Positions 2,757 to 24,299 of a DNA stretch of 64,000 bases are shown one piece after another (positions within the stretch are counted from its first letter, which is position 1; the number at the start of each line of letters is the position of its first letter). Origin of the DNA: Arthrobacter sp. MYb213. GTDB taxonomy: Bacteria > Actinomycetota > Actinomycetes > Actinomycetales > Micrococcaceae. The DNA lies in contig NZ_PCQA01000006.1 in assembly GCF_002979915.1 (NCBI RefSeq), positions 218,226 through 282,225 on the forward strand, read 5' to 3'. The translations under genes and the position numbers were made by a program. The notes below the pieces were generated by a model. The model had not been told where the DNA came from. It did no database searches and saw only the letters and a list, made by a program, of their open reading frames with translations.

Positions 2757-4445
2757 TTAGACTTTGTCGCTGAACTCTTCACGGACCTGCTTGCGCAAGA
2801 TCTTGCCCAGCATGGAGCGTGGCATCTCTTCGATAGCGACGATGCGCTTAGGCACCTTATAAGCGGCCAATTGACCGCGGCAGTGCTCGCGCAGTGCCGC
2901 CTCATCCAAGGTTGCCCCCTCGTCGAGTTGAACCGCTGCCACCACCATTTCACCCCCGCGTTCCAGCGCCTTGCCGAAGACCGCAGCGTCCGCAACATCT
3001 GCGTGTTGACGCAGTGCGTTTTCAACTTCAGTCGGTGACACGTTAAACCCGCCGGTGATAATCAGTTCCTTGGCCCGGTCCACAATCTGCGTGAAGCCAT
3101 CTTCGTCCACGGTGACCACGTCTCCGGTGTGCAGCCAGCCGTCTTCGGTCAGAGTTTTTGCGGTCTCTTCCGGGTTGTTCCAGTAGCCCGCAAATACCTG
3201 TGGTCCCTTGATCAGTAATTCGCCTGGTTCACCCTGAGCTACTTCTCGGCTCGGATCATCCACGTCGACTACCTTCATCAGGGTCGAGGGGAAAGGTACT
3301 CCAATGGTCCCGTTACGCCGCGAAGGATGAAATGGGTTACCCAAGGCCACCGGCGAGGACTCGGTCATCCCGTAGCCTTCCACCAATAAGCCGCCGGACA
3401 TCGATTCCCACAGTTCCACCACGTGATCTGGCAGGTTCATCGCCCCAGAGATGCAGTACTTCGCCGAGCGCAACGAGATACCCTGCTCTTTGGCTGCCAT
3501 CGCGGTGCGTTCATAAATGGGCGGAACCGCGCAGTACACGGTGGCCGGAGACTTCTTCCAGGCATCCAAGATTAGCTGCGGATCAAACTTCGGGAAGAGC
3601 ACCAATAGTCCTTGCTTCTTGATCCCGAAAGTCAGATACAAGGTCATACCAAAAGCGTGGAACATCGGCAGGATTGCGTAGAGAATTTCCTTGCCCTGCT
3701 GCGCACCTTCCATCCATGCTTCACCCTGCAATGCGTTGGAATACAAGTTGAAGTGCGTGAGCATCGCACCCTTGGGGCGTCCAGTGGTGCCCGAGGTGTA
3801 CTGGATAACCGCAAGGTCGTCCACGGTTGGGAATGGATGCTCGGAGCCCAAGCTTCCGGAGGCCAACAGCTGCTTCCAGGCCATGGTGCCGGCGGTGGGG
3901 GCGGTCAACGATTTTTTGGTTTCACGCAGTTTTTTCAGTGGAAGATTCAAGGCCATACGCTTGACCGCAGGGAAGGCTTCAAGCAGGTTCACCGCGATGA
4001 TCGTATCGATCTGCACGTCGCCGGGAAACTTCTGCACGCTGGAGACTACCTTGTCCCAGGCGATGACCACGCGTGCCTGGTGGTCTTCAAACTGGTGGCG
4101 AAGTTCGCGAGAGGTGTACAGCGGATTGTGCTCCACCACGACCGCGCCCAAACGCAGCACCGCATAAAAGGCGACCACGTGCTGTGGGCAATTCGGCAAG
4201 ATGAGAGCCACTCGGTCTCCGGCTTTCACACCGAGTTTGCGCAATCCTTCGGCTGCTTGCAAAACTTGTTCGCCAAGGTCCGCGTAGCTGACCTGGCGAC
4301 CGAAGAATTCGGTGGCCGGACTCTGACCGGCTTCGCGCACGGACCGCTCGAACATATGGCTCAACGATTCGGTGGGAAGCTCAATCTGTGCAGGAACGCC
4401 TGGCTGATAGTTAGCTACCCAGGCCGGTGCGGCAGTATTATCCAT
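2757..4445 (-). CDS. fadD: Long-chain acyl-CoA ligase (AMP-forming)
   Basis: An ANL-superfamily enzyme of about 560 residues that activates a fatty acid with ATP and CoA. The ATP/AMP motif YTSGTTGRPKGAM, the GYGMTESSP segment, the TGDV aspartate, the hinge RAKELIITGGFNVSP and the C-terminal catalytic lysine (SMLGKILRKQ) are all present, so the enzyme should be active. The frame is open upstream to a TTG at 4505; ATG codons at 4457 and 4445 fit family N-termini better (MDNTAAPAW). None has a strong SD. The gene stands alone and converges on the toxin-antitoxin insertion. Confidence 0.9.
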   Translation of the reverse strand: MDNTAAPAWVANYQPGVPAQIELPTESLSHMFERSVREAGQSPATEFFGRQVSYADLGEQVLQAAEGLRKLGVKAGDRVALILPNCPQHVVAFYAVLRLGAVVVEHNPLYTSRELRHQFEDHQARVVIAWDKVVSSVQKFPGDVQIDTIIAVNLLEAFPAVKRMALNLPLKKLRETKKSLTAPTAGTMAWKQLLASGSLGSEHPFPTVDDLAVIQYTSGTTGRPKGAMLTHFNLYSNALQGEAWMEGAQQGKEILYAILPMFHAFGMTLYLTFGIKKQGLLVLFPKFDPQLILDAWKKSPATVYCAVPPIYERTAMAAKEQGISLRSAKYCISGAMNLPDHVVELWESMSGGLLVEGYGMTESSPVALGNPFHPSRRNGTIGVPFPSTLMKVVDVDDPSREVAQGEPGELLIKGPQVFAGYWNNPEETAKTLTEDGWLHTGDVVTVDEDGFTQIVDRAKELIITGGFNVSPTEVENALRQHADVADAAVFGKALERGGEMVVAAVQLDEGATLDEAALREHCRGQLAAYKVPKRIVAIEEMPRSMLGKILRKQVREEFSDKV

Positions 4446-17497: not shown

Positions 17498-17620
17498 ATG
17501 AGTAACACTTCTGACACCGCTACGACGATTGAGCAGTCTATCGAGATCGAAGATCTAATCATTACTGATGAAGACCTGATGGATGTACAGCTTCGGGCTC
17601 GAATGGATGTCGGTCACTAA
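17498..17620 (+). CDS. 40-residue RiPP-type precursor peptide
   Basis: This short gene encodes MSNTSDTATT, a strongly acidic middle (IEQSIEIEDLIITDEDL), then a C-terminal part MDVQLRARMDVGH. The split between an acidic helix-prone N-terminal half and a short Arg-containing tail is what is expected of a ribosomal precursor with leader and core. There are no Cys and few Ser/Thr in the tail, so lanthipeptide or azole chemistry is unlikely. The tail offers two Arg for the downstream arginase-like enzyme and Arg, Asp, Met, His or Asn-free positions for the oxygenases. A modest SD (GAGAAAG, 10 bases upstream) precedes ATG. A hairpin separates it from the enzyme genes. Confidence 0.75.
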   Translation: MSNTSDTATTIEQSIEIEDLIITDEDLMDVQLRARMDVGH

Positions 17621-17631
17621 GCCAGTTTCAT

Positions 17632-17669
17632 CAATCCAGCCTCGGTCGCAGAATACTGAGGCTGGATTG
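17632..17669 (+). terminator. Hairpin between precursor and enzyme genes (attenuator-like)
   Basis: CAATCCAGCCTC and GAGGCTGGATTG form a perfect 12-bp stem with a 14-base loop, starting 12 bases after the precursor stop. There is no T-tract, so partial termination or mRNA protection is more likely than full termination. Such hairpins commonly raise precursor levels over enzymes in peptide operons. Confidence 0.65.
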
Positions 17670-17686
17670 GTTCGAGAAAGTACAGG

Positions 17687-18847
17687 ATGACTACGATTAA
17701 AAACGATGCTTGGTCGCGATTTGCACAAGAGCATGGGCCGGACTTTGCAACGGTGAAGTATATTCCCTCGCTTGTCACTGAACCCGAAGCAGTAGCCTCC
17801 GCGATCGGTCATTCTTTAAAGAATGCGACCGATCCCCACGTGCATGAAGCTACAGGACTCCCTCGGATCAGGGTTTTCGGTCCTTCTCAGCTAGATTATG
17901 AGGCCTCAGAAGCAGTAGTACATTCCAAATACGATGGCTCCAATCTGGTCGATTGGCTACAAGTAGTTACGGGCCGCAAAGATGTGTGCGCCGCGTTCAA
18001 TGGGGTGGAGACCTGGTCGTCAAAAACCCGTTCCATCATCTATCGAAGTATTGTCGAGCCGATGGTCACGGCTTGTGGTGTTCCACCACGAGGATTAGAC
18101 TTTTATTCTTTTATTGCGATGTCCGGGTTCACTCCCTTCGGCATACATTCGGATCCCGAGCCGTCATTTATTTTCCATCTGGGGCCAAACACGAAAACTG
18201 TGTGGGTTTGGGAAAAAGACACGTTACCGAAATTGCCGGATAATCGCGAGATCAGCCTCCATACGGACAAATATCTGAAGTCTGCCGATCATGAGTTCAC
18301 GCTCGGCCCTGGAGATTTCTTATGCATACCCGCAGGTCGTTTTCATCTATTCCGAAACAATGGACCGGCTGTCTTTCTAGGAATGTCCTACTATCGGGAG
18401 AATAACCACGACGAATTGCTTCAAGCAATTTCAGCGCTGGTCCGCCGGTCAGGAGATCAACACGACCCCGTGAACACAGCTCTGGCTGCGGCTGCTAATG
18501 GTGAAATCCGTCGTGAACTGGATCGCCGTCAATCTCAACGTTTAAGCAGGGGCCATCTGGGGCCTTATCGAATATTGCCAGTTGAACTCTTTAACGTCGA
18601 CCTCCCCGCTGAATGCCTAGATGTCCCTTTCACTGTCAACAACAACCAAATTTCGGTCATGGGCCAGAGTCTTTCGATACCAGAGAATATCTCAAATGAA
18701 GATATCTCTCGCTTTTTCCAACCGGGAAAAGTACTCCGGGCTGTCGACCTTCAAAAACTAACGGATGATTCTTCCGCGGGGAACGCTCTCTTTATTGCAT
18801 TACTACGTGTGGGTGCAACCTTCCAGACTGCTGAGGTAGGTTCATGA
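17687..18847 (+). CDS. JmjC/cupin-fold Fe(II)/2-oxoglutarate oxygenase-like protein A
   Basis: A 386-residue protein with the facial-triad pattern of JmjC/cupin oxygenases: H154 and D156 in FGIHSDPEPSFIFHLG and a distal H220 in GDFLCIPAGRFHLF, with the strand TVWVWEKD between them. The likely role is side-chain hydroxylation of the precursor peptide; this rests on context. The C-terminal ~140 residues (from about 245) have no motif I know and may bind the peptide or mediate dimerisation, as in ribosomal oxygenases. ATG follows a GAGAAAG site. The stop overlaps the next ATG (ATGA). Confidence 0.75.
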   Translation: MTTIKNDAWSRFAQEHGPDFATVKYIPSLVTEPEAVASAIGHSLKNATDPHVHEATGLPRIRVFGPSQLDYEASEAVVHSKYDGSNLVDWLQVVTGRKDVCAAFNGVETWSSKTRSIIYRSIVEPMVTACGVPPRGLDFYSFIAMSGFTPFGIHSDPEPSFIFHLGPNTKTVWVWEKDTLPKLPDNREISLHTDKYLKSADHEFTLGPGDFLCIPAGRFHLFRNNGPAVFLGMSYYRENNHDELLQAISALVRRSGDQHDPVNTALAAAANGEIRRELDRRQSQRLSRGHLGPYRILPVELFNVDLPAECLDVPFTVNNNQISVMGQSLSIPENISNEDISRFFQPGKVLRAVDLQKLTDDSSAGNALFIALLRVGATFQTAEVGS

Positions 18848-19881
18848 GTACCTGGGAAGCAGTTCAAGCAGCACTAGGTGTGGAATTATTTCCCTTCGGC
18901 GAATTTAGGTCAGGTCATGTAGATCCTTCGACTCTGACGGCTTTGGGCTGGCCCTCTGTCAACCGCATAATCAAGTACTCGAATTTCGAACCGGGAACCA
19001 TCAAAGTAGTTCCGGAGACGGATCTGGACCCCGGACTCTACATTGAAGCGAAAATGGGTGGCGGAACGATTATTGAACGTCAGCCAAGAACTAGGCCCTT
19101 CACTGAACTACTCCGGGAAGGGGCAACCCTTGTACTCAACAAAGCAGATCGGGCCTTACCTGAGCTTTCTGACTTCGTAGAACGGTTGATGTATACACAA
19201 AATGAAGCGGCCTGGGCCAACGGATATGCGTGCTGGTCCAAGAATTCGGCTTTTGGGCGGCATGCCGATTCCCACGACACCATAATTGTGCAAACGGAAG
19301 GTCGAAAGCATTGGCGCGTATACCGCGGCAATGGATCTGACGCCGAGCTAGTCTTCGACGATATTCTTGAAATCGGTGACTTTATACATGTTCCTGTCGG
19401 CTGGGATCACGAAGTAACAGGTGTCGGATGCGAAAGTCTTCATTGGACTTTCGGCGTTGCTCATACCTCGCGCACCGAAACGATAAAAGAACTCATTAAT
19501 TTCGGATGGAGTCTTGGCCAAATCGATCGTTTGACTGAGGAATCCCTACGCGGTCGTCTTTTACACTTGCGCGGAGAACTTAGCACAGAACACCGAAAAG
19601 GACTCTCACTCCCGTGGCGCGTACATGACTCCTCATTAAGTGGCGCAGTCATCCGCTGGGCTGGACGCTTCAAGCCCAGCTTAGAAATTAAAGAAGAACA
19701 GTTCCATATCAGAGGGTTAGGGAAACTGGTAAAACTCCCATTGACCATGCGACCTGTTCTCGAAGTGCTCATTTCTGGTGAGGGCTTGCACTTTGATAGC
19801 TTGCCTAACTCCGCGCAGGAAGTCGTACTTTCCATGTTTATCGCCGAGCTATTGATTGCGGAGCATGCAGACCAAAAATAA
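18844..19881 (+). CDS. JmjC/cupin-fold oxygenase-like protein B (ribosomal-oxygenase type)
   Basis: 345 residues. The motif FGRHADSHDTIIVQTEGRK followed by WRVY, then GDFIHVPVGWDHEV, closely follows the cupin_4/JmjC pattern of YcfD/NO66/MINA53-type enzymes: H140, D142 and H189 as iron ligands and K155 placed for 2-oxoglutarate. Known relatives hydroxylate Arg or His in ribosomal proteins; the precursor tail offers both residues. The C-terminal winged-helix-like part (LTMRPVLEVLISG...) also resembles ribosomal oxygenases. It overlaps protein A by 4 bases and the arginase gene by about 17-26 bases. Confidence 0.78.
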   Translation: MSTWEAVQAALGVELFPFGEFRSGHVDPSTLTALGWPSVNRIIKYSNFEPGTIKVVPETDLDPGLYIEAKMGGGTIIERQPRTRPFTELLREGATLVLNKADRALPELSDFVERLMYTQNEAAWANGYACWSKNSAFGRHADSHDTIIVQTEGRKHWRVYRGNGSDAELVFDDILEIGDFIHVPVGWDHEVTGVGCESLHWTFGVAHTSRTETIKELINFGWSLGQIDRLTEESLRGRLLHLRGELSTEHRKGLSLPWRVHDSSLSGAVIRWAGRFKPSLEIKEEQFHIRGLGKLVKLPLTMRPVLEVLISGEGLHFDSLPNSAQEVVLSMFIAELLIAEHADQK

Positions 19882-21022
19882 TGCAACTAACGACGTTGAG
19901 TGGGTGTGGCATCCCGCATTGCTCGAACAAGACTCAAAACTCTTTAATCCAGCCGAGGGTTCTTCTCTGGAATTAAACGAGGCAGTGTTAAAACTTCGTG
20001 CCCGCTCTTCTGTCGCGCGTTCAGAACTAAACCCTGAAGTTTTCGACAAACTTAGTCGCTGTCGTTTCCTTATCCCCAAAGAATGTGCGCTCGTTGCAAC
20101 GCATGGACTCCTAAAATCAGCCAAACCCGTCGTCGAAGTCGAATGCGCTCAACATTCGACACCTTGGGGCCTGATTGGTGCGGGTGTTTGGCAAAACCCC
20201 GACCCAGATCTCGCAGTTCACGACGTGCTCGCCGGACTCCGCCGCGGACTGCAACGCTCTCTCGCTACCGTCACAAATGCCAATTCTTGGGACTGGAATG
20301 AGATGAGCACTGCGGAAAATCCTCCTTGTAGCGTCGTTGACCATGGAAATCTTATCGTTGATTCGCGCGTTGACACGGCACAAGACATCGCAACCAGACT
20401 TTTAGCGGCAACGCGCACAGTTGGTGCCCAAGGCCACAACCCAGTTGTCATCGGCGGAGATCATTCTATTGCCTATCCCGTTATCACTGCGCAACGAGAA
20501 CGATGGCAGCAGCTAGTAGTGGTGCACCTAGATGCCCACGCAGATGCTCGTCCAATTCCTCAAGGACAAGAGACTGCTGATTGTGGAAACTTCGTCACTT
20601 GGTGTTTGGCAGACGAGCCGGACTTGCCATGGCTAACTCTTGGAGTGCGCGGTTACGACCCAGAGTTTTCGATGTCTTCACCTTCAAATGCAAAGCATGT
20701 CTCCTTTATCAAAGCATCAGATCTTGGATCTAAACAATGTTTCGATGAAATTGACCGGCATTGCCAGGGACGCCCAGTGCATCTGAGTATCGATATCGAT
20801 GTCCTTGATCCGGTCTTCGCACCTGAGGTTGCTTACCCGGCCATTGGAGGGGCGGATCCAGACATTATTAAGGAAATTATCAACCGAATAAGTTCAACGG
20901 GAACAATCGTAGGAGTCGATTTCACCGAGGTTTGCGGCCCAATGACCCGACGAAATTTGGCTGCAATGCATGCCATAGACATGCTCACTCACATTTTAAC
21001 GCCGAAAAGGACTATTTCTTGA
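19865..21022 (+). CDS. Arginase-superfamily enzyme, probable peptide arginase
   Basis: The ureohydrolase core has all Mn-binding motifs: GGDHS, VHLDAHADAR and SIDIDVLDP (H203; D226, H228, D230; D313, D315 counted from a TTG three codons upstream at 19856). At ~385 residues it is longer than free arginases or agmatinases (about 300); the first ~110-150 residues have no family motif and could bind the precursor. Coming between two oxygenases and after a peptide with two Arg, the likely reaction is Arg to ornithine in the peptide, as reported for the OspR peptide arginases. A role in free arginine or agmatine breakdown cannot be excluded. Confidence 0.75.
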   Translation: MQTKNNATNDVEWVWHPALLEQDSKLFNPAEGSSLELNEAVLKLRARSSVARSELNPEVFDKLSRCRFLIPKECALVATHGLLKSAKPVVEVECAQHSTPWGLIGAGVWQNPDPDLAVHDVLAGLRRGLQRSLATVTNANSWDWNEMSTAENPPCSVVDHGNLIVDSRVDTAQDIATRLLAATRTVGAQGHNPVVIGGDHSIAYPVITAQRERWQQLVVVHLDAHADARPIPQGQETADCGNFVTWCLADEPDLPWLTLGVRGYDPEFSMSSPSNAKHVSFIKASDLGSKQCFDEIDRHCQGRPVHLSIDIDVLDPVFAPEVAYPAIGGADPDIIKEIINRISSTGTIVGVDFTEVCGPMTRRNLAAMHAIDMLTHILTPKRTIS

Positions 21023-22338
21023 CATCTCAATCCGTTCGAAGTGGAAATCCTTTTCGATTAAGCAGTTTCCGCCTCTACTACTTGGGCCAGTCGATCTCAT
21101 TCTTGGGCGATGGAATCGTCCCGATGACCTTTGCGTTCGCGGCCCTCGCCGTGTCTGATTCAGGATGGGGTATGCCTATCGTGCTTCTGTCGTTGTGGGG
21201 AACACGCATGTTGCTCATTGCTCCAGGAGGGAACGTTTCAGACAAGTACAACCGTGTCACCGTCATGGTTGTTGCTGATCTGGTCCGTCTCTTGGCTCAA
21301 ATCATTCCGGTCTTTGCTTTCATCACAAATACAGCAACGTTATGGCATCTGGGGATCTCAGCGGCGCTGTACGGTGTCGGAACTGCTTTCTACATCCCCG
21401 CTAGCATTGGCCTGTTGCCACGGATTGTGCCAAAAGAATCGCTGCAAAAAGCGAATTCGTGGATCGATTTAACCCTAAACACAGGGCTTCTAGCTGGTCC
21501 AGCATTAGCAACGATTCTTGTCTCACTAGGCGGAATACCCACTGCATTACTCTTTGATATTGCAACGTTCCTCGTTTCCATAGCATGTTTGTCATTCCTA
21601 TTCCGCTTGTCCAAGGGTCAGCTTTTGATCAATGGCTTCGCGGAAAGCGATGACGACAAAACCGCAGAATCCGTAAATGAGAAAAAAGAAGACGAGATAC
21701 CCCCAGGTTTCCTCAATGGGTTGCGCCTCTTGCCTCGCTACCCGGGTGTTTTGTGGCTGATGTTACTTTCGTGTCCCGTGCAGTTGAGTATCGCTTCCAT
21801 TAGCGTCCTCGGCCCAATAATTGCTAGAGATAGATTGGGCGGTATCGCATTCTGGGCCAGCCTTGCGACCGCACTTGCCGCCGGAGGGCTTGTTGGTTCT
21901 TTCCTTGCCGGATGGGTCAAAGTTAAAAAGCCGGTAGTGCTTGTTCTGGTCGTATTGGCGATTTGCCAGCCTATACAGCTGGTTCTCTTTGGCTTAGGAC
22001 TGAATATTATTGTTCTGGCCGTTTCCTTTGCAGCTACAGCCATCCTTGTAACCGTTGCTGGAATCCTTTTTGACACGTATGTCCAAATGACGGTGCCTGA
22101 TTCGGCATTATCCCGGGTGGGATCAATCGAACAAACGTTGATGTCTGTCATGGTTCCGATTGGGTTCGCAGTCAGTTTGCCCATGGCTCAGTGGATGGGG
22201 TCTTCGCAGTATCTATATTTGTTAGCGGCAGTCATTGCTTGTTGCGCACTGATAGCCATGTTTTTCCTCTTCCCTCGTCAGTCAAGAATTGATGAGTCCC
22301 AAACACGAATGATCCAAAGAGTAGGGAGCCACAAGTGA
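21019..22338 (+). CDS. MFS exporter of the peptide cluster
   Basis: A 12-helix major-facilitator protein of ~440 residues related to the EntS/MFS_3 efflux group, with the loop motif GGNVSDKYNRVTVM after helix 2. A TTG whose TGA overlap (TTGA) joins it to the arginase stop is the most economical start; the frame is open upstream to 20932. A charged cytoplasmic loop near residues 210-235 (SDDDKTAESVNEKKEDE) separates the two halves. It would export the finished peptide and give some immunity. Confidence 0.8.
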   Translation: MTSQSVRSGNPFRLSSFRLYYLGQSISFLGDGIVPMTFAFAALAVSDSGWGMPIVLLSLWGTRMLLIAPGGNVSDKYNRVTVMVVADLVRLLAQIIPVFAFITNTATLWHLGISAALYGVGTAFYIPASIGLLPRIVPKESLQKANSWIDLTLNTGLLAGPALATILVSLGGIPTALLFDIATFLVSIACLSFLFRLSKGQLLINGFAESDDDKTAESVNEKKEDEIPPGFLNGLRLLPRYPGVLWLMLLSCPVQLSIASISVLGPIIARDRLGGIAFWASLATALAAGGLVGSFLAGWVKVKKPVVLVLVVLAICQPIQLVLFGLGLNIIVLAVSFAATAILVTVAGILFDTYVQMTVPDSALSRVGSIEQTLMSVMVPIGFAVSLPMAQWMGSSQYLYLLAAVIACCALIAMFFLFPRQSRIDESQTRMIQRVGSHK

Positions 22339-23363
22339 CAGAGCTGAGAGATTTGCTAACGCAACTGGGAATGCCCACTGGAGCGGAGCTAAATTGGACC
22401 ACCACGGCCGAAGGGCGTCCCGGAAGAATCGTCGCCATGCATGGACGACAAGTAGAAGTCATCGCGGTGAATGGTGGTGCGCTGGAACATATTGTACTTG
22501 ACCTTTCGCGCAACCTCGCCACTACCCCGGTGACTGGAGATTGGGTGATTGTCAACGCCGATCGAGTTGTCGCTCTCGGTGGTCGCACTACCAACCTTTC
22601 GAGACCAGACCCAAGCGGTCAAGGAGTTCAAGTTCTTGCCGCCAATATCGATCACGTGATGATTGTCCTCTCGCTGGAGCGGGGACTGAATCTTAAGTCC
22701 TTGGAACGCCTTTCGGTCATGGCCTGGGACAGTGGCGCATTGCCGATTACGGTGCTCACCAAAGCCGATACCGTCGAGAATCTCACGGAAGCAGTTGCGC
22801 AGGCAGCGCTGGCTGCGCCCGGAACTGAGGTTTTATTGACCAGCTCACTGACCGGACGCGGTTTGGAGCGACTGCGCGAAATTATGGCTGTCGGGACTAC
22901 GACCACCATGCTTGGCGCTAGTGGGGCAGGCAAAACTTCCTTACTCAATGCGCTAGAAGACAAATCAGAAAAGGTCCGTGAAGTTAACACTTCTGGCGAA
23001 GGGCGTCATGCGACTTCTGCACGCCGCCTCTACCGATTATCAAGCGGAGGGGTATTGCTTGATCTGCCCGGTATTCGCTCACTTGATTTGCTCGCCACCG
23101 ATGAAGGAATGGAGGAGACTTTCGTTGAAATTGCAGAATCTGCTCTGCGTTGTCGTTTCCATGACTGCGAGCATGGCACCGAACCGGGATGCGCCGTCCA
23201 GGAAAGTGTCAAAGCAGGGGAAATCCTCCAACGACGTCTCGATAATTGGCACAAAATCCGCAGAGAAATGTCTTATCAAGAACGCAAAGGTGACGCAGCG
23301 TTAATGGCAAAACAACGAGCGGAGTGGAAAAATATGACTAAGAGCCATAGGTCAAGAAAATGA
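22335..23363 (+). CDS. RsgA-like ribosome small-subunit GTPase
   Basis: A circularly permuted GTPase of 342 residues with an N-terminal OB-like region, G4 TKAD (142-145), G1 GASGAGKTS (194-202), a GEGRHATS switch (usual RsgA: GRHTT), G3 DLPG (243-246) and a C-terminal zinc knuckle (C273, C278, H280, C286). RsgA acts late in 30S maturation near the decoding centre. Its GTG overlaps the exporter stop and its TGA overlaps the next oxygenase ATG, so it is a built-in member of the operon. A second, cluster-linked copy would fit a self-protection role; if it is the only copy in the genome this idea fails. Confidence 0.85.
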   Translation: MTELRDLLTQLGMPTGAELNWTTTAEGRPGRIVAMHGRQVEVIAVNGGALEHIVLDLSRNLATTPVTGDWVIVNADRVVALGGRTTNLSRPDPSGQGVQVLAANIDHVMIVLSLERGLNLKSLERLSVMAWDSGALPITVLTKADTVENLTEAVAQAALAAPGTEVLLTSSLTGRGLERLREIMAVGTTTTMLGASGAGKTSLLNALEDKSEKVREVNTSGEGRHATSARRLYRLSSGGVLLDLPGIRSLDLLATDEGMEETFVEIAESALRCRFHDCEHGTEPGCAVQESVKAGEILQRRLDNWHKIRREMSYQERKGDAALMAKQRAEWKNMTKSHRSRK

Positions 23364-24121
23364 TGCCTCAGCGAATACCCGTAGTCGAGCAGTGGCCGCT
23401 TACTGCATCGGCACTAGATGGGCCGATTTGTGTGAAATCGCAAACAGATGAGTGGCCAATTAATCGGCTCGTGCGCTCCCAGACGCTCCAAATCGTCTAC
23501 GCAGAACAAACCGTTAATGTCGAAACTCAGGATGGAACGATCTCCTCAACGGTGGGTGACTACTTTCAATTGCTCGCAAAAGGAGACGGGCTAGATACTT
23601 ATTTGAAGGGTTGGACGGTCTCAAACTACCTCTCCGACTTCGCGAAACTACCGTTACCAGCTGTATTTCAGAGCTGGTTTGGCGACCTTCCCCACGGATC
23701 ACGACCTGACTGGAATTGGATTTTCGTCGGGCCCAAAGGTAGTAACTCGGCATTGCACATCGATGTGATGTGCAGTTCTGCATGGAATCTTCTGGTGAGC
23801 GGAAGAAAGAAATGGTTATTCCAGTCTCCGGCGCTCGCTGCTGACGCAGGATTGCTGCAAGATTCTCTGGTGGTGTCTTCTGGAAACGAAGCCCGAATCC
23901 AATACACGCATATTCAAGAACCTGGCGATGTAGTCATCGTTCCGGGCGGGTGGGCCCACGCAGTGGAGAACTTGGATCTGACAGTTTCGCTCACTGGCAA
24001 CTGGGTCAATAGTTCTAACGCACAGTTGGTCGAAGCAGATCTCGCGCTCCATGAATCGGACCCTTGGCGCCAAGTGATGGCTTCGCTACGCGCGCGATAT
24101 CAAATCGGCTTCAAAATTTGA
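23360..24121 (+). CDS. JmjC/cupin-fold oxygenase-like protein C (JMJD6-like)
   Basis: 253 residues. The core SNSALHIDVMCSSAWNLLVS with GRKKWLF and then GDVVIVPGGWAHAVENLDL contains H133, D135 and H200 of the iron triad, lysine K150/K151 near the 2-oxoglutarate site, and the NW ending (TGNWV) common in JMJD6-like cupins. It is smaller than oxygenases A and B and lacks their C-terminal domains. ATG overlaps the RsgA stop. The last ~45 codons are duplicated just downstream. Confidence 0.78.
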   Translation: MMPQRIPVVEQWPLTASALDGPICVKSQTDEWPINRLVRSQTLQIVYAEQTVNVETQDGTISSTVGDYFQLLAKGDGLDTYLKGWTVSNYLSDFAKLPLPAVFQSWFGDLPHGSRPDWNWIFVGPKGSNSALHIDVMCSSAWNLLVSGRKKWLFQSPALAADAGLLQDSLVVSSGNEARIQYTHIQEPGDVVIVPGGWAHAVENLDLTVSLTGNWVNSSNAQLVEADLALHESDPWRQVMASLRARYQIGFKI

Positions 24122-24299
24122 TTTAGGGTACGTCACACCCGTTTCGCTCACTGACAACTGGGTTAATAATTCTCACGCACAGTTGGTCGAAGCAGATTTC
24201 GCGCTCCAAGGATCAGGCCCTTTGGCGCCAAGTGATGGCTTCACTTGGCGTGCGACATCTATTCGGCTTCAAAACTTGACGTTGGGTGCATCACACCCG
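23985..24299. repeat. Tandem duplication, two copies of ~157 bp
   Basis: Copy 1 (23985-24141) is the 3' end of oxygenase gene C plus 20 bases; copy 2 (24142-24299) follows directly and agrees with it at roughly 85% of positions by eye. Both begin TTTCGCTCACTG and end TCACACCCG. Confidence 0.9.
24142..24299 (+). pseudogene. Decayed duplicate of the oxygenase C 3' end
   Basis: The segment repeats codons for TVSLTGNWVNSSNAQLVEADL and the following tail, but substitutions and a one-base length change have broken the frame and it lacks any start. It forms the right boundary of the AT-rich island and supplies the sequence upstream of the GntR gene, including a TTGACG at about 24276. Confidence 0.75.

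What the first reader, a model, noticed from the sequence alone, without database searches (positions are those of the whole stretch)
17498..24121. Apparently undescribed RiPP-type cluster: small peptide, three JmjC/cupin oxygenases, peptide-arginase-like enzyme, MFS exporter, RsgA paralogue
Seven genes in one direction, six of them joined by 4-bp (or slightly larger) stop/start overlaps, encode a 40-residue peptide plus a coherent modification, export and possible immunity set. Each enzyme keeps its metal-binding residues (HxD...H in all three oxygenase-like proteins; GGDH, DAHAD and DIDVLDP in the arginase-like protein). No lanthipeptide, lasso, radical-SAM, YcaO or protease gene is present, so it does not match a RiPP class known to me. 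The predicted chemistry is Arg to ornithine with hydroxylation of nearby side chains.
Basis: partly seen in the sequence, partly recalled or inferred. Interest (0 to 1): 0.93.

Follow-up and report, generated by a model that had tools for sequence, protein, structure and literature searches.

The report
Unknown modified-peptide family with ribosome guard
This gene cluster, like relatives in Streptomyces and Pantoea/Klebsiella plasmids, encodes a small peptide with the same tail (Arg-x-Asp-Val/Thr-Gly-His) beside enzymes predicted to hydroxylate it and turn one arginine into ornithine, and it likely makes an undescribed antibiotic that would act on the ribosome, with a spare ribosome-clearing GTPase likely protecting the maker.

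Summary
All seven genes are present. Arginase-bearing clusters carry an extra Arg (R-x-R-x-D); Streptomyces peptides lack it and, where checked (7 of 15), the arginase too. A third oxygenase goes with Val at position 4; enterobacterial clusters have Thr and none. The arginase is PF00491, not the OspR/PF12640 family; its N-terminal domain models as an RRE-like winged helix, pointing to a peptide substrate. Oxygenase 1 models like ribosomal oxygenases (YcfD/NO66). RsgA paralogues of actinobacterial clusters form one clade apart from housekeeping RsgA. Best reading: an undescribed RiPP family making a hydroxylated, partly ornithinylated C-terminal peptide exported by an MFS pump. A 30S target with RsgA self-protection is inferred. 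Product, leader cleavage and activity are untested. Biphenomycins share Arg-to-Orn and JmjC hydroxylation, but their other hallmark enzymes are absent here.

The parts
17498..17620 (+). Likely precursor peptide, 40 aa, tail RARMDVGH; predicted acidic leader plus C-terminal core
   Evidence: ORF; tail conserved in 23 of 23 records examined; protein-database relatives P0007-P0030; 10 synonymous / 2 non-synonymous codon changes against G. ardleyensis
17687..18847 (+). Oxygenase 1 (J1), ROX/JmjC-type, predicted peptide hydroxylase of the R-x-D motif
18844..19881 (+). Oxygenase 2 (J2), JmjC_2/PF08007, nearest solved relatives NO66 and YcfD; predicted peptide hydroxylase
   Evidence: Pfam 4.2e-16; NO66 3.1e-5; homologue in Curtobacterium, Streptomyces and Pantoea clusters; ligands invariant in 9 of 9
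19865..21022 (+). PF00491 arginase with an N-terminal RRE-like winged-helix domain (about residues 11-80); predicted Arg-to-Orn on the precursor
   Evidence: Pfam 3.3e-40; model and fold comparison; metal-binding residues invariant in 6 of 6 cluster arginases aligned
21019..22338 (+). MFS exporter
   Evidence: PF07690 4.2e-26; 38% to Streptomyces and 62% to Curtobacterium cluster MFS
22335..23363 (+). Second RsgA (ribosome small-subunit GTPase); predicted self-protection factor
   Evidence: TIGR00157 above cut-off; housekeeping copy elsewhere at 35%; 8 RsgAs labelled cluster form one clade, 99/97 (one of the 8 lies on a separate contig and its label is assumed); G-motifs and Cys/His zinc ligands kept in 4 of 4 cluster copies aligned
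23360..24121 (+). Oxygenase 3 (J3), JMJD6-like JmjC; predicted hydroxylase of Val (or of the Orn)
   Evidence: PF02373 3.5e-11; JMJD6 2.9e-17; 52% homologue in the Curtobacterium cluster

Best explanation
The cluster encodes a conserved small peptide, likely a precursor, and a set of enzymes predicted to hydroxylate its C-terminal Arg-x-Asp-Val-Gly-His core and to convert the preceding arginine to ornithine, likely giving a small ribosomally made antibiotic. Shown by sequence: the fixed tail next to the enzymes in three lineages, the gene order, and the clade of cluster RsgAs. Predicted from models and homology: the arginase holds the leader through an RRE-like domain and acts on the first Arg of R-x-R; the ROX-type oxygenases J1 and J2 hydroxylate residues of the fixed R-x-D...H core (J1 at Arg or Asp, J2 perhaps at His); J3 hydroxylates Val (or Orn). 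Inferred and untested: proteases of the host remove the leader, the MFS pump exports the product, the product binds the 30S decoding region, and the RsgA paralogue protects the maker by clearing it from the 30S. Enterobacterial relatives would use an acetyltransferase instead (3 of 5 loci annotate a GNAT, a fourth a same-sized unannotated gene in its place, the fifth has none).
For: Peptide beside J1 in 23 of 23 records examined: window, G. ardleyensis L005, Curtobacterium L009; the same 11 of 11 Streptomyces plasmids hit by J1 and, at adjacent coordinates, by the peptide (tail letters read directly in 3, the rest by alignment over residues 1-31); the same 5 of 5 Pantoea/Klebsiella plasmids hit by J1 and by the peptide (tails read in 4, the fifth has the same protein accession as L017); 4 of 4 strong hits among 392 genomes of an unnamed genus taken as Streptomyces. 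Tails R-x-D-[VT]-[GS]-H in 24 of 24 database peptides, one with Ser for Gly, though shared words are how that search finds them. Arginase with R-x-R-x-D in 8 of 8 arginase-bearing loci; no PF00491 on 3 of 3 whole Streptomyces plasmids and no arginase-like ORF in 4 of 4 Streptomyces genome loci (one cut by its contig end), which all have PRxD. Third oxygenase with Val: window, G. ardleyensis, Curtobacterium and 6 of 7 fetched Streptomyces loci (the seventh ends at a contig end); Thr and no third JmjC/2OG oxygenase annotated in 5 of 5 enterobacterial loci. RRE-like domain: 29 of 36 rows are RiPP enzymes (my count and classification; several rows are repeat entries of one protein). J1 as ROX fold. 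RsgA clade; RsgA homologues in Glutamicibacter, Curtobacterium and Streptomyces clusters.
Confidence: 0.7

Rival explanations
1. Same peptide chemistry, but the product is a metallophore or signal rather than a ribosome inhibitor; beta-hydroxy-Asp, hydroxy-His and hydroxy-Orn are metal ligands, and RsgA has another role.
For: Predicted hydroxy-acid ligands; the MFS matches the EntS siderophore-exporter model (NF007792, 7.9e-17, but 61 bits against a cut-off of 324); enterobacterial clusters have no annotated RsgA.
Against: No TonB receptor or ABC importer is annotated in the fetched plasmid clusters (the plasmid gene table is incomplete); an RsgA gene is kept in Glutamicibacter, Curtobacterium and Streptomyces clusters.
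Confidence: 0.14
2. The enzymes act on free amino acids (arginase, hydroxylases) and the peptide is a regulator or an unrelated small protein.
For: The arginase belongs to PF00491, whose solved relatives are small-molecule ureohydrolases.
Against: Tail conserved to the last residue in 23 of 23 records while leaders diverge; RRE-like domain on the arginase; J1 has the fold of protein hydroxylases; tail changes with enzyme content.
Confidence: 0.05
3. The peptide is modified as above, but only a fragment or single amino acid is released (peptide used as scaffold), and the small molecule is the bioactive product.
For: Very short fixed core; no protease; hydroxylated Arg/Orn units are common building blocks (recalled).
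Against: R, D, G and H are fixed at set spacing to the C-terminus (13 of 13 aligned), which suggests that the whole hexapeptide matters; no lantibiotic-dehydratase-type peptide-extension enzyme is among the cluster proteins.
Confidence: 0.11

Closest known systems
Biphenomycin RiPP clusters (bip/pbs; PMC12707348, PMC12257519, passages read)
   Same: Short C-terminal core with Arg converted to Orn by an arginase and hydroxylated by a JmjC/cupin oxygenase (BipG/PbsQ); MFS exporter in bip
   Different: Biphenomycins need an MNIO, a B12 radical SAM and a TldD protease and an FRF core; none is here. Their arginase is of the UPF0489/PF12640 kind. 'RsgA' occurs 0 times in both papers
KgrD of enteropeptin (PF00491 arginase in a RiPP; read in the introduction of PMC12703449)
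   Same: Arginase of the PF00491 family acting in a RiPP pathway
   Different: KgrD needs a thiomorpholine-modified Arg made by other enzymes; no such enzyme here; whether KgrD has an RRE was not examined
OspR/FlmR/OhkR/PbsE peptide arginases (PF12640)
   Same: Predicted reaction, peptidyl Arg to Orn
   Different: [quoted passage not shown] this one has GGDHS, DAHAD, SIDIDVLDP
Ribosomal oxygenases YcfD, NO66, MINA53
   Same: J1 models with their architecture, J2 matches them by sequence
   Different: Those hydroxylate ribosomal proteins; here a precursor peptide is the predicted substrate
RsgA (30S biogenesis GTPase)
   Same: Family membership, G-motifs and zinc ligands
   Different: Cluster copies form their own clade in addition to a housekeeping copy

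Membership tests
RiPP (general) | Precursor gene with variable leader and conserved core next to modifying enzymes | tested here: met
   23 of 23 records examined; tail fixed, leaders divergent
RiPP (general) | RRE-like winged-helix fold on a modifying enzyme | tested here: met
   [not shown]
RiPP (general) | Modified mature peptide detected | not testable with these tools
   No mass data available
Peptide arginase PF12640 | EEH(N/H)EAF, DXHXD, LDIDLDYFSC motifs | tested here: not met
   GGDHS, DAHAD, SIDIDVLDP instead; Pfam hit is PF00491 only at E up to 1 (motifs read in PMC10028609 and PMC12703449)
Biphenomycin-type RiPP | MNIO plus B12 radical SAM plus TldD protease, FRF core | tested here: not met
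   None among the seven cluster proteins; core is RxDVGH
Enteropeptin-type RiPP | Thiomorpholine made from a Cys next to Arg | tested here: not met
   No Cys in the 40-aa peptide and no radical SAM family among the cluster proteins
Ribosomal oxygenase (ROX) family | JmjC domain, dimerisation helices and C-terminal winged helix | tested here: met
   [not shown]
RsgA | RsgA GTPase domain with C-terminal zinc-binding Cys/His | tested here: met
   PF03193 6.7e-37, TIGR00157 147 bits over cut-off 100; C-x4-C-x-H-x5-C in 4 of 4 aligned
RsgA-type self-resistance | Confers resistance to the cluster product | not testable with these tools
   Only association: clade conserved with actinobacterial clusters

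The most novel reading that the evidence does not exclude
A new RiPP class in which ribosomal-oxygenase-type hydroxylases, recruited from enzymes that decorate ribosomal proteins, and an RRE-fused conventional arginase turn a C-terminal RxD[VT]GH peptide into a 30S-binding antibiotic; producers are immune through a dedicated RsgA paralogue that ejects the drug from the ribosome, a target-protection mechanism not described for RsgA.
Probability: 0.4. Interest if true: 0.93.

Novelty: new variant of a known kind. Interest (0 to 1): 0.82.

Why it matters
It defines by sequence a RiPP family shared by actinobacteria and enterobacterial plasmids, with a core readable from DNA, so the product can be sought directly by mass. 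It would add ROX-type hydroxylases and RRE-fused PF00491 arginases to the RiPP toolbox, and the RsgA paralogue offers a testable hint of both the target (30S) and a new immunity mechanism.

Tried and rejected
Peptide-arginase family (PF12640): rejected on motifs. Phage carriage: the J1 alignment found no relative in viral contigs; phages held only weak arginase matches, 5 records. E. coli genomes hold no near match to the Klebsiella cluster DNA. Pfam on the arginase N-terminus and the J1/J2 C-termini: no informative family, so the RRE claim rests on the fold comparison alone. L025 and L051, weaker J1-like loci, have neither tail type. Of the 15 weaker J1-like plasmid records, 6 were fetched; weak genome hits G533 and G598 were not followed. 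Wider surveys found no further strong J1: 197 relatives apart from G000 and G009, 396 of the phylum apart from G000, 394 of the class apart from G000, 66 of the Curtobacterium genus apart from G926, 297 of the order apart from G000. RsgA tree: the split matches of G1135 (L057, L064, L068, L073) and its housekeeping piece (L072) were left out; the G1240 cluster label (L054) is assumed, as it lies on another contig than J1. Literature: no paper held 'peptide arginase' with cupin, RiPP and ornithine, RiPP with cupin and hydroxyarginine, or the core motifs; heme oxygenase-like with RiPP, cupin and arginine gave one review, whose passages were not on this system. RsgA with biosynthetic gene cluster and self-resistance gave one paper, where rsgA is a duplicated core gene outside the cluster; the 14 papers with RsgA and RiPP were judged by title and listing only, none relevant. 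The GMRPD motif search returned 35 papers, 20 listed, none relevant by title. No preprints and few subscription papers are held, so 'undescribed' is limited to this library.
Full report
What is there. The seven ORFs stand as described. In the genus, 2 of 18 genomes have the cluster. It is a stretch of lower GC. In 6 of 16 cluster-less genomes the left flank gene (a ketoacyl-ACP synthase III-like ORF) lies within the 1.5 kb upstream of the right flank GntR gene, so those sites look empty; in the other 10 it was not within the fetched 1.5 kb.

The peptide is real and conserved. Oxygenase 1 (J1) is rare: 6 proteins in about 5.8 billion at E 0.001, later widened by tblastn and an alignment. Upstream of every close relative whose locus I read, a small ORF ends in the same tail. 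Glutamicibacter: RARMDVGH. Curtobacterium: RNRMDVGH, with database relatives RTRMDVGH and RNRQDVGH. Streptomyces: [GS]PR[QR]DVGH. Pantoea and Klebsiella: RDRRDTGH or RDRSDTGH, on the divergent strand. In the plasmid collection the J1 search and the peptide search hit the same 11 Streptomyces records and the same 5 enterobacterial records, at adjacent places. With the window, G. ardleyensis, Curtobacterium and four genomes of an unnamed genus taken as Streptomyces (their J1 is 67-77% identical to that of the named plasmid L015) this is 23 of 23. Loci of four J1 proteins known only from the protein search (P0001, P0003, P0005, P0006) were not fetched. Leaders share no clear sequence between lineages while R, D, G and H are invariant in the 13 aligned; one database peptide has Ser for Gly (P0030). 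The Streptomyces peptide has no listed feature in 10 of 11 plasmids.

Gene content tracks the tail. I read 15 loci (window, L005, L009, L015, L016, L027, L042-L045, L017, L019, L020, L022, L094). All 15 have J1, J2 and an MFS gene (cut in L044, split between frames in L045; in L022 annotated only as hypothetical, with a sub-threshold PF07690 match). Curtobacterium has the full set in the window's order. Streptomyces clusters have J1, J2, MFS, a 2OG-Fe(II) oxygenase of another family and RsgA. Enterobacterial plasmids have arginase, J1, J2 and MFS, with a GNAT between J2 and MFS in three, an unannotated same-sized gene there in JZ29, and none in FDAARGOS_680. Arginase goes with R-x-R-x-D: 8 of 8 arginase-bearing loci have the extra Arg. 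The Streptomyces peptides lack it; PF00491 is absent from 3 of 3 whole Streptomyces plasmids and from the ORFs of 4 of 4 Streptomyces genome loci. For the other 8 Streptomyces plasmids arginase absence was not checked. A third oxygenase goes with Val at core position 4; enterobacterial clusters have Thr, which already bears the beta-hydroxyl, and no annotated third JmjC/2OG oxygenase. I infer that arginase acts on the first Arg and that the third oxygenase makes a hydroxyvaline. The alternative for J3, given its JMJD6 likeness and the Orn hydroxylase BipG (PMC12707348, passages read), is Orn hydroxylation. These are three lineages, so few independent events.

Enzymes. The arginase carries the conventional motifs and an extra N-terminal domain of about 100 residues. 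The modelled fragment is confident over residues 11-70 (10-residue means 78-84) and poor beyond 80. The fold comparison lists 36 entries, of which I count 29 as RiPP enzymes (TigE, MibB, MadB, NisB, MccB, TbtB, lasso B1, PbtF, McbB, cyanobactin enzymes and others; repeat entries included; that the matches fall on their RREs is recalled for most); the other 7 are five YcfD entries, BmdC and Rv2067c. Plain Foldseek has several of the same proteins on top but no significant E. This is the best evidence that the arginase takes a peptide. PF00491 arginases in RiPPs have a precedent, KgrD (introduction of PMC12703449, read in full). J1 models at mean pLDDT 81 and matches YcfD and NO66 over 300-337 residues. 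J2 matches NO66 and YcfD by sequence. These are protein hydroxylases of Arg and His, fitting the fixed R-x-D...H core. Weaker relatives of J1 sit beside multicore peptides with G[MV]RPD repeats in 10 of 12 such loci examined, which shares R-x-D and suggests that the J1 family reads Arg-x-Asp.

RsgA. The genome has a housekeeping RsgA at 35%. Eight RsgAs labelled cluster form one clade (99/97), nine housekeeping copies another, and four further Streptomyces copies a third, sister to the cluster clade in the midpoint-rooted drawing; one of the eight (G1240) lies on a separate contig, and the split G1135 copies were left out. GTPase and zinc motifs are intact in the four aligned. A spare ribosomal GTPase beside an exporter suggests self-protection at the 30S subunit; that RsgA binds the decoding region is recalled knowledge. 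This step is inference.

Known or not. Biphenomycins share Arg-to-Orn and JmjC hydroxylation but not the other hallmark enzymes or the core (passages). No paper in the held library carries the core motif, and searches for this combination found only the biphenomycin work as relevant. The class looks undescribed within that library; preprints and most subscription journals were not searchable.

Limits. No product, no protease, no assay; the residue assignments of J1, J2 and J3 are predictions.

Noticed in passing
In the aligned members (L018, L023, L024) the HxD motif reads HxG (HRGFE/HEGYE), so the facial-triad Asp seems lost, as in 2OG halogenases (recalled), or Glu158 takes over. Looks like a second RiPP-type family.
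   Followed up: partly
window 24121-24290: Partial duplication of the 3' end of oxygenase 3 just downstream of its stop; in the G. ardleyensis locus only 6 bp separate that stop from the GntR ORF.
   Followed up: partly
L058, L061, L062, L063: Streptomyces-type genomes carry another RsgA-like paralogue (40-44% to the window copy), present also in G363, where no strong J1 cluster was found; its neighbours were not examined.
   Followed up: partly
L044, - strand, stops at 3350 and 3084: Two precursor ORFs in tandem, tails SPRQDVGH and GPRQDVGH, before one J1.
   Followed up: no
L017:5399-8059, L020:4397-7057, L094:6836-9448: Three Pantoea clusters have an FAD-dependent oxidoreductase, a hypothetical protein and an EamA transporter next to the precursor; not annotated in the Klebsiella locus L019.
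   Followed up: no
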